Positions 39,613 through 55,291 of a stretch of DNA of 64,000 nt are shown here, piece after piece. The number at the start of each line of letters is the position of its first letter. Position 1 is the stretch's first letter. A model generated the notes under the pieces. The model was not told the DNA's origin, ran no database searches, and saw only the letters and a program-made list of their open reading frames with translations. Position numbers and translations under genes: made by a program. This stretch comes from Fervidicoccus fontis Kam940 (GTDB taxonomy: Archaea > Thermoproteota > Thermoprotei_A > Sulfolobales > Fervidicoccaceae): contig NC_017461.1 in assembly GCF_000258425.1 (NCBI RefSeq), positions 62,001 to 126,000 of the forward strand, written 5' to 3'.

Positions 39613-40035
39613 ATGAGCAAAAAGTTCGGCAACTTTACTATAGAATCTATAATGAGTAGCCCCCCCGTGGTTGTCCACAAGGAAACCTCGGTTCATGAGG
39701 CTGCGAGGATAATGTTCAATAACAGGATAGGAAGCGTTTTAGTTGTAGAAGATGATGGTAGGCTCATAGGAATCCTTACGGAGAGGGACCTTGTTTACCT
39801 AGTTGCTTCCGATAAGCTCCACACGGCGAGCGAAATGAAGGTCTGGCACCTGATGACTGAGAACCCGATCACGGTGAAGGCAAACGAGACCATCGGAGAT
39901 GCTCTTTCGAAAATGAAGGAAGTGAACATAAGGCACTTACCCGTAGTAAACGACGAGGGAAAGCCCATAGGCATCGTTTCAATGAGGGACATTTTAGACT
40001 ATATAATAAGCTTTCTGGATCTATCCTTCCATTAG
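39613..40035 (+). CDS. CBS-domain protein
   Basis: 140 aa made of two CBS motifs: MSSPPVVVHKETSVHEAARIM to GILTERDLVY, and MTENPITVKANETIGDALSKM to GIVSMRDILDYI. The paired CBS (Bateman) module binds adenine nucleotides and usually regulates a partner protein. No other domain is fused. It follows the SRP RNA, and the AT-rich TTTAAAAATATT upstream may be its promoter. Confidence 0.92.
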   Translation: MSKKFGNFTIESIMSSPPVVVHKETSVHEAARIMFNNRIGSVLVVEDDGRLIGILTERDLVYLVASDKLHTASEMKVWHLMTENPITVKANETIGDALSKMKEVNIRHLPVVNDEGKPIGIVSMRDILDYIISFLDLSFH

Positions 40036-40101
40036 AAACCTTCACATAACGGGTAGCTTTCCTTAACGGTTCAAGACATTGAGAACGATTTTCTAAGAAT
40101 A

Positions 40102-40158
40102 GGGGAGGAGAGGGGGAGGTCCAGAGCCCCGCATCCTTGGCCGCTAGACTACCCGGCT
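40102..40158 (-). tRNA. Candidate split tRNA-Gln(CUG), 5' half with GC-rich tail
   Basis: Read on the minus strand from 40158, AGCCGGGTAGTCTAGCGG and then CCAAGGATGCGGGGCTCTGG give the acceptor 5' strand, D-arm, anticodon 5' stem and loop of tRNA-Gln with CUG at 34-36 (38 nt, to 40121). An 18-19-nt all-pyrimidine, C-rich tail follows (40102-40119), then an AT-rich stretch. No T-arm or 3' acceptor strand (CCCGGCT) is found in the next several hundred bases or just upstream. An AT-rich TTAAAAATTT promoter box lies about 20-25 nt ahead. This matches the layout of 5' halves of trans-spliced archaeal tRNAs; a gene fragment left by recombination is the alternative. Confidence 0.65.
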
Positions 40159-40195
40159 TCATTCAACAGTTATTATTAAAAATTTAAGGATATAT

Positions 40196-41203
40196 TTATT
40201 TTTTCTCCAGGAACTCCTCTATCTTCAATGCGGCATCAAGCCCGCTCTTTACTGCGGGCCCTATCTGGGAAGGTCCGTGCTTTACATCTCCCGCCGCAAA
40301 TACCCCTTTAACGCTCGTCTCAAACTTTTCGTTTGCAGCTATAGTTCCATTGCTGTTCAGTTTTATTCCAGCCTCTCCAACATCTATTGGAGGGGTGGGA
40401 ATAGGGCCAATTGCATTTATGATCGTGTTCAGGTAATAGGTCTGAACCTTATCTTCATGTACTATGAGCTCAGCGCTCCTGCCGCTTCCCCTCATCTCAG
40501 TGACGTAGAAGCTCATTCCTTCAGCAACTCCGTTTTTGCATAAGACTTCCCTAGGTGATAGCAGCTCGTAAAATAAAACGCCCCTCTCCTCGAGCATCTT
40601 TATGTCATTGGCCCCCATAGGGGCATCTTTTTTCGTCCTTCTGTAAAAGATAAAGGTTTTTGCCTTAAAAGCTGTGCTTGAAATGAAGGCTGCATCTGCA
40701 GCAGTAAACCCTGCGCCTATGACACCTACAGGCTCCTTTACATAGGTCCTTATGTTGAAAAGCTTTTGATATCCGAACTTCTCGAGATGGTAATCTATGA
40801 GCCACTCCACCGATGGGTAAACATTCTCCGCATTTTCACATCTCACATTCATCCTCTTCGTCTTTAGAGTACCTGTTGAGATAAGAGTTGCGTCTGAGCT
40901 TCTTATTATCTCTTTAAGGGGGACCTTCTCCCCGACCATTGTCTTGAGGTGTGCTCTCACCATTCCAGTGGAAATCAGCTCCTTAACCCCGTTCCTAATG
41001 CCGTCCTTTTTCAGCCTTTCCTCCGGTATCCCAAACATCATGAGGCCTCCAAGCTCAGGATGAACGTCATAGACGTGTATCTCGTATCCCTTGCAAACTA
41101 AATACCCTGCTGCGCTTAATCCTGCAGGCCCTCCGCCAATTATTGAAACTATTTTATTCTTTTCCTTTGCTATTTCTTCTGCTTTACACTTTAAGAACTT
41201 CAA
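40196..41203 (-). CDS. GltD-like FAD/NAD(P)-dependent oxidoreductase
   Basis: 335 aa. An FAD-binding GGGPAGLSAAGYL motif at about 23-35 is followed by ELGGLMMFGIPEERL, the GltD/glutamate synthase small-chain signature, a second dinucleotide site GVIGAGFTAADAAF, and the FAD-closing GVFAAGDVKHGPSQIG. It lacks the N-terminal Fe-S domain of full GltD, so it probably pairs with another subunit or acts in electron transfer. The start is TTG 41203. It is transcribed alone. Confidence 0.85.
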   Translation of the reverse strand: MKFLKCKAEEIAKEKNKIVSIIGGGPAGLSAAGYLVCKGYEIHVYDVHPELGGLMMFGIPEERLKKDGIRNGVKELISTGMVRAHLKTMVGEKVPLKEIIRSSDATLISTGTLKTKRMNVRCENAENVYPSVEWLIDYHLEKFGYQKLFNIRTYVKEPVGVIGAGFTAADAAFISSTAFKAKTFIFYRRTKKDAPMGANDIKMLEERGVLFYELLSPREVLCKNGVAEGMSFYVTEMRGSGRSAELIVHEDKVQTYYLNTIINAIGPIPTPPIDVGEAGIKLNSNGTIAANEKFETSVKGVFAAGDVKHGPSQIGPAVKSGLDAALKIEEFLEKK

Positions 41204-53559: not shown

Positions 53560-53689
53560 AGCGGGGTAGGGCAGCCAGGTAGCCCGCGGGAGGAGCAGAA
53601 AAGCTTTCTGCTCCCGCGAAGCTCATAAAAGGTTGCCCAATGACATTTGAGAAACCCCGAGGTCGGTGGTTCAAATCCACCCCCCGCTA
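53560..53689 (+). tRNA. Initiator tRNA-Met (CAU) with two introns
   Basis: Exons at about 53560-53590, 53621-53627 and 53654-53689 join to a cloverleaf with A1-U72, GGG-type anticodon stem (CGGGG/CCCCG), loop CTCATAA with CAT, T-loop TTCAAAT and A73. These are initiator features. Intron 1 (~30 nt, near position 30/31) folds as a strong hairpin; intron 2 (~26 nt) is at the canonical 37/38 site. An 8-bp inverted repeat (CGGCGGGT at 53546, ACCCGCCG at 53701) encloses the gene. Exact splice points of intron 1 are uncertain by a few bases. Confidence 0.92.
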
Positions 53690-55189: not shown

Positions 55190-55291
55190 TGGGGCCGCCG
55201 GGATTTGAACCCGGGACCACCAGCGTTCCAGGTTTTGTCATATCGGGGTTCCTCCCCAGGCTGGCATCCTACCAAGCTAGACGACGGCCCC
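55190..55291 (-). tRNA. tRNA-Pro (anticodon GGG) with an intron
   Basis: 102 nt. Acceptor GGGGCCG/CGGCCCC, anticodon stem CCAGC/GCTGG, T-loop TTCAAAT and A73. Removing a 28-nt insert at about 55226-55253 (canonical 37/38 site) leaves loop CTGGGGC with anticodon GGG. A short variable loop excludes Ser (GGA), the other way to read the loop. Confidence 0.9.

What the first reader, a model, noticed from the sequence alone, without database searches (positions are those of the whole stretch)
40102..40158. Candidate split tRNA-Gln(CUG): a 5' half with a C-rich tail and no 3' half
Seen: a well-formed tRNA-Gln 5' half on the minus strand (acceptor strand AGCCGGG, D-arm, anticodon loop CTCTGG with CUG) that stops after position 37/38 and continues into an all-pyrimidine CCTCCCCCTCTCCTCCCC tail, then AT-rich DNA. 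No T-arm or CCCGGCT strand is found on either side, and an AT-rich promoter box precedes it. Known: trans-spliced tRNA halves in Nanoarchaeum, Caldivirga and some Desulfurococcales carry GC-rich complementary tails that bring the halves together. Inference: the 3' half lies elsewhere, preceded by a purine-rich GGGGAGGAGAGGGGGAGG-like leader.
Basis: partly seen in the sequence, partly recalled or inferred. Interest (0 to 1): 0.85.

Follow-up and report, generated by a model that had tools for sequence, protein, structure and literature searches.

The report
Trans-spliced split tRNA-Gln in archaeon
The window holds the front half of a glutamine tRNA whose back half lies hundreds of kilobases away in the same archaeal chromosome and is shared with a second glutamine tRNA, so the cell's whole glutamine-decoding set must be pieced together from separate RNAs; related archaea have done the same repeatedly.

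Summary
Window 40158-40121 (-) is the 5' exon (positions 1-37) of tRNA-Gln(CUG), followed by a C-rich tail. The complete 1.32-Mb genome has no intact tRNA-Gln. It has exactly one orphan Gln 3' half (G000:C1:1009109-1009050, minus strand), preceded by the predicted purine-rich leader AGGGAGGAGAGGAGGCAGGAGAGAT. A second 5' half with anticodon UUG (963128, minus strand) carries a similar tail, so two 5' halves share one 3' half. Joined exons are called tRNA-Gln(ctg) and tRNA-Gln(ttg) by ARAGORN and match intact tRNA-Gln of relatives at 70-71 of 73 bases. Tail and leader form a canonical bulge-helix-bulge at 37/38; two splicing-endonuclease paralogs and RtcB are present. Split tRNA-Gln occurs in 17 genomes of 11 genera and 5 families of the order, with different tail sequences that match their own leader (0 of 20,000 permutations as good). 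Synteny suggests that UUG lost its own 3' half and was captured by the CUG 3' half. This is a new member of the known split-tRNA kind; I found neither the capture step nor the recurrent splitting of tRNA-Gln in the literature held. Expression was not tested.

The parts
40121..40158 (-). 5' exon of split tRNA-Gln(CUG), tRNA positions 1-37 (38 bases)
   Evidence: Sequence; joined with the 3' half it is called tRNA-Gln(ctg) by ARAGORN; 71/73 identical to intact tRNA-Gln(CUG) of a relative
40101..40120 (-). C-rich 3' tail ACCTCCCCCTCTCCTCCCCT; first base is in the 5' bulge (GG^A), the rest pairs with the 3'-half leader
   Evidence: cofold of the two halves gives the bulge-helix-bulge and tail-leader helix (-73.1 kcal/mol); tail-leader agreement conserved in relatives with different sequences
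40159..40206 (-). AT-rich promoter region (BRE/TATA-like) upstream of the 5' half; promoter function inferred
   Evidence: Motif learned from 30 regions upstream of intact tRNA genes scores 10.4 bits here; 0.8% of random 70-mers score as high

Best explanation
The feature is the gene for the 5' half of a trans-spliced tRNA-Gln(CUG). It is transcribed from its own promoter as a short RNA (exon 1-37 plus C-rich tail). The tail anneals to the purine-rich leader of a 3' half transcribed from G000:C1:1009109-1009050 (-). Annealing restores the anticodon stem and makes a bulge-helix-bulge at 37/38 (4-bp central helix C32-U35 with AGAG; bulges GG^A and AU^C). The two-subunit tRNA splicing endonuclease cuts both bulges and RtcB ligates the exons (these two enzymatic steps are inferred from known archaeal splicing). 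The same 3' half also serves a tRNA-Gln(UUG) 5' half at 963128 (-): the leader base opposite position 34 is G, which pairs with C34 and wobbles with U34. With no other tRNA-Gln in the genome, all Gln decoding depends on trans-splicing.
For: (1) The only Gln-type 3' half in the complete genome is an orphan with the predicted complementary leader. (2) No intact tRNA-Gln among the genome's tRNA genes, yet 110 CAA and 228 CAG codons occur in 43 long ORFs of the window alone. (3) Joined exons are called Gln ctg and ttg, each half alone is not; 70-71/73 identity to cis tRNA-Gln of relatives. (4) Unconstrained cofold of the CUG halves returns two 3-nt bulges separated by 4 bp; all 25 5'/3' pairs from 17 genomes keep the 4-bp helix (100% of cells paired, 40-67% when slid). 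(5) Tail-leader pairing follows the genome of origin: one pair per genus, 11 genera, mean -40.2 kcal/mol against -26.2 (sd 1.9) permuted, 0 of 20,000 as good. (6) In G019 two separate Gln pairs discriminate: -31 cognate, -24 and -11 non-cognate. (7) The base opposite nt 34 is A only in UUG-only leaders (4 of 5, against 0 of 12 leaders that must serve CUG; Fisher p = 0.002, 0.014 counting genera). (8) The 3' half has a promoter motif better than 90% of the tRNA genes, 39 bases before the leader. (9) Two splicing-endonuclease paralogs and RtcB are present.
Against: No RNA data were available: transcript ends, splicing and charging are unproven. This genome's own CUG tail is low-complexity and pairs as well with some other genomes' purine-rich leaders (rank 7 of 19; run of 11 bp, p = 0.035), so the tail match alone would be weak for this one copy. 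The covariation in the central helix is not beyond the tool's shuffles (58 of 500). The promoter motif of the UUG 5' half is weak (7.0 bits).
Confidence: 0.95

Rival explanations
1. A decaying 5' fragment (pseudogene) of a tRNA-Gln broken by a rearrangement, with the working tRNA-Gln elsewhere.
For: The fragment lacks a 3' half locally; broken tRNA remnants at integration sites are common in archaea (own knowledge).
Against: No intact tRNA-Gln of either anticodon exists in the complete genome; the exon is intact to the base, twice, and kept in eight genomes of the family and nine others; tails match their own genome's leader.
Confidence: 0.03
2. A cis-spliced tRNA-Gln with a very long intron or a permuted gene rather than two transcripts.
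For: In G041 and G039 the halves lie on one strand about 0.2 and 0.8 kb apart, as in Aeropyrum pernix tRNA-Asp, where a read-through product was seen (PMC3218864).
Against: In the window genome the 3' half lies 907 kb (or 412 kb) away; in G029, G057 and G064 the halves are convergent on opposite strands.
Confidence: 0.01
3. Split and trans-spliced as described, but the CUG 5' half is redundant: tRNA-Gln(UUG) reads both codons, so this half is dispensable.
For: U34 in UUG can wobble to CAG in principle (own knowledge); three relatives show only the UUG 5' half, though their assemblies are 61-79% complete; a fourth, G029 at 91%, keeps a second CUG-type 3' half.
Against: CAG is twice as frequent as CAA in the window ORFs (228 to 110); the CUG half is kept in the more complete genomes G000, G008 and G019.
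Confidence: 0.1

Closest known systems
Split tRNA-Glu(UUC)/(CUC) of Nanoarchaeum equitans (one 3' half, two 5' halves)
   Same: Two isoacceptor 5' halves share one 3' half; split at 37/38; complementary tails and BHB (PMC3218864 Table 1; PMC4390854)
   Different: Other isotype (Gln), another phylum; here relatives show what looks like the state before sharing, with two separate pairs
Split tRNA-Gln(UUG) of Nanoarchaeum equitans
   Same: Same isotype and anticodon as the second 5' half here
   Different: Split at 32/33 there, at 37/38 here; CUG not listed as split there (PMC3218864 Table 1)
[quoted passage not shown]
   Same: Crenarchaeal split tRNAs with GC-rich tails; tRNA-Lys(CUU) split at 30/31 is also present in the window genome; convergent halves as in T. 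aggregans are seen in G029, G057 and G064
   Different: No shared halves reported there; another isotype (PMC3218864)
Split and tri-split tRNAs of Caldivirga maquilingensis
   Same: A constitutive half combined with alternative halves to make synonymous tRNAs (PMC4390854)
   Different: Other isotypes (Gly, Ala, Glu); no tri-split tRNA looked for or seen here

Membership tests
Archaeal trans-spliced split tRNA | 5' and 3' halves encoded at separate loci | tested here: met
   5' halves at 102158 (-) and 963128 (-), 3' half at 1009109-1009050 (-)
Archaeal trans-spliced split tRNA | No intact gene for that tRNA | tested here: met
   All 42 tRNA matches over cut-off read; none has a Gln anticodon
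Archaeal trans-spliced split tRNA | Complementary tail and leader | tested here: met
   Helix in cofold; genus-level permutation 0 of 20,000
Archaeal trans-spliced split tRNA | Bulge-helix-bulge (3-nt bulges, 4-bp helix) at the junction | tested here: met
   All 25 pairs; unconstrained MFE shows it for CUG
Archaeal trans-spliced split tRNA | Joined exons form a regular tRNA | tested here: met
   ARAGORN calls Gln ctg/ttg on joined sequences, none on single halves
Archaeal trans-spliced split tRNA | Separate promoter before each half | tested here: inconclusive
   Good for the 3' half (90th percentile of tRNA genes), moderate for the CUG 5' half (37th percentile), weak for the UUG 5' half
Archaeal trans-spliced split tRNA | Two-subunit splicing endonuclease and ligase present | tested here: met
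   Two tRNA_int_endo genes and RtcB; assembly as a heterotetramer is inferred
Archaeal trans-spliced split tRNA | Transcribed halves and ligated mature tRNA | not testable with these tools
   No RNA data

The most novel reading that the evidence does not exclude
Split tRNAs evolve by capture. The family ancestor of the window organism had two separately split tRNA-Gln genes with mutually discriminating tails (state kept in G019). In the lineage of genera g1 and g2 the UUG gene lost its own 3' half (still beside pelota in g4 and g5) and its 5' tail was rewritten to use the CUG 3' half (the ERCC4-nuclease-side locus in g2, g3 and g4), where a G opposite position 34 accepts both anticodons. A second family shows the same end state, and in three more families single species have split tRNA-Gln while congeners keep it in one piece, so tRNA-Gln at 37/38 is a recurrent target of gene splitting.
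Probability: 0.65. Interest if true: 0.72.

Novelty: new member of a known kind. Interest (0 to 1): 0.62.

Why it matters
Split tRNAs were listed in only a handful of archaeal species up to 2015 (PMC4033280, PMC4390854), and whether they are ancient relics or late products is debated. Here one isotype gives 17 genomes in 11 genera with cis, cis-intron, separately split and shared-half states side by side, so the order of events, the rewriting of tails and the minimum needed for discriminating pairs can be tested directly. It also shows that a standard tRNA finder can miss all Gln tRNAs in a complete genome.

Tried and rejected
Pairing between the leader of the 3' half and its own downstream trailer (GAGGCAGGAGA with TCTCCTGCCTC in the window genome) was tested: significant for G000, G040 and G048 (11-bp runs, p 0.0025-0.005), borderline for G057 and G064, absent in other families; kept as a side observation, not part of the claim. 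Pairing between the upstream region and the tail of 5' halves: nothing beyond shuffles apart from one of 25 at p = 0.03. The central-helix covariation test with the count of structure pairs was not beyond shuffles. Nine further GGTTCRANTCC places in the genome were read; two belong to tRNA-Trp (C/D-box-like intron) and the tRNA-Lys(CUU) 3' half, the rest look like chance. A BLAST of the 3' half against plasmids found nothing.

Full report
What is there. On the minus strand, window 40158-40121 is a perfect 5' exon of tRNA-Gln, positions 1 to 37, with anticodon CUG. It runs into the tail ACCTCCCCCTCTCCTCCCCT (40120-40101) and then AT-rich DNA. The half sits between a pyridine nucleotide-disulphide oxidoreductase gene (40196-41203, minus) and a CBS-domain gene (39613-40035, plus). 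ARAGORN and Rfam find no tRNA there.

Where the other half is. The window lies at 62001-126000 of a single 1,319,206-bp contig rated 99.92% complete. Of 42 tRNA matches over the Rfam cut-off, none has a Gln anticodon. Scans for the T-loop motif and for CCCGGCT met, for a Gln-type 3' half without a 5' half, at one place only, 1009050-1009084 on the minus strand, the weakest hit of the tRNA scan.

A second 5' half and a shared 3' half. The 5' exon (27 bases searched, up to 3 mismatches) occurs twice in the genome. The other copy, 963128-963091 (-), differs only in the anticodon (CTTTGG, that is UUG) and carries the tail ACCTTCTCCTCTCCTCCCATAT. Both must use the single 3' half. Joined exons are recognised as tRNA-Gln(ctg) and tRNA-Gln(ttg), single halves are not, and the joined sequences are 70-71 of 73 identical to one-piece tRNA-Gln of relatives. 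Long ORFs in the window use 110 CAA and 228 CAG codons, so the tRNAs are needed.

How it works. Cofolding the CUG halves without constraints gives the anticodon stem, a 3-nt bulge GG^A, four pairs (C32-U35 with AGAG), a 3-nt bulge AU^C, and then the tail-leader helix (-73.1 kcal/mol). This is the canonical archaeal splicing motif at 37/38. The genome encodes two tRNA splicing-endonuclease paralogs and RtcB. Cutting and ligation are inferred from studied split tRNAs (PMC3218864). In shared or CUG leaders the base opposite position 34 is always G, which pairs with C34 and wobbles with U34; A appears there only in leaders that serve UUG alone (4 of 5 against 0 of 12).

Relatives. The genome's family (f1) has 8 genomes here; all have separated Gln halves. 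Split tRNA-Gln also occurs in family f5 (six genomes) and in single genomes of f7, f8 and f9 whose congeners keep the gene in one piece. In total 25 5' halves and 18 paired 3' halves from 17 genomes were compared, plus one unpaired 3' half of G029. Cognate tails and leaders pair at a mean of -38 kcal/mol against -25 for pairs from different genomes. With one pair per genus the observed mean of -40.2 was never reached in 20,000 permutations. Where a genome has two paired 3' halves (G019), each tail prefers its own leader.

History. The UUG 5' half lies at the same place in all five genera of the family (upstream of a nucleotidyltransferase, a radical-SAM gene and, where the sequence reaches that far, pelota). 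In G029 and G057 a UUG 3' half lies just beyond pelota on the opposite strand. The shared 3' half of genus g2 lies between an ERCC4-type nuclease and a tyrosine recombinase; G029's second 3' half lies at that same place and the CUG 3' half of G019 lies beside the same nuclease gene. The simplest reading is that both tRNA-Gln genes were split separately, and that in g1 and g2 the UUG 3' half was lost and the CUG 3' half took over. In the window genome itself the 3' half lies in another neighbourhood, so for g1 this rests on the leader type and on kinship, not on position. In f5, G004 and G036 have a split CUG and a one-piece UUG gene, while G015, G026, G053 and G045 share one 3' half, a possible second case.

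A third split tRNA. tRNA-Lys(CUU) is split at 30/31: 5' half at 360836 (+), 3' half near 272899 (-), with a perfect 13-bp tail-leader helix; the joined exons are called tRNA-Lys(ctt). In relatives the same tRNA is intact (G019), has an intron at 30/31 (G057) or looks split (G008, G040, G029; 5' halves not fetched).

Limits. Nothing here shows transcripts. The window's own tail is low in complexity and would fit several purine-rich leaders; the case rests on the full set. Several relatives are incomplete assemblies. The literature held is open-access only; no paper in it mentions both split tRNA and Fervidicoccus, and the reviews read list no split tRNA-Gln outside Nanoarchaeum, but subscription papers and tRNA databases were not searched.

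Noticed in passing
G000:C1:360836 (+) and about 272869-272935 (-) (L062, L148): tRNA-Lys(CUU) is split at 30/31 with a perfect 13-bp tail-leader helix; joined exons are called tRNA-Lys(ctt). Relatives show intact and intron-bearing versions.
   Followed up: partly
L138, L135, L136 (3' half loci): The leader of the Gln 3' half is also complementary over 11 bp to the trailer behind the 3' half (GAGGCAGGAGA / TCTCCTGCCTC in the window genome; other letters in g2), which would compete with the 5'-half tail; significant in G000, G040 and G048 only.
   Followed up: partly
G000:C1:712603-715311 (-) (L187): RtcB, the presumed tRNA ligase, carries what reads as an intein of about 450 residues (insertion starting at a Cys and ending HNFVANGIIVSN before Cys).
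   Followed up: partly
G000:C1:1188863-1188653 (-) (L059): tRNA-Trp with a long intron that contains C/D-box-like sequences, missed by the Rfam cut-off; such introns are known in other archaea.
   Followed up: no
window 53573-53689 (+) (L043): Initiator tRNA-Met with a long non-canonical intron before the anticodon; scored below the Rfam cut-off.
   Followed up: no
window 55190-55291 (-): tRNA-Pro(GGG) with an intron, found by Rfam but missed by ARAGORN.
   Followed up: no
L199 (G029:C33): Orphan CUG-type Gln 3' half in G029 whose 5' half was not found in the 91% complete assembly; its leader predicts a tail complementary to GGGGTCAGGAGCCGAAATCTTTGTG.
   Followed up: partly
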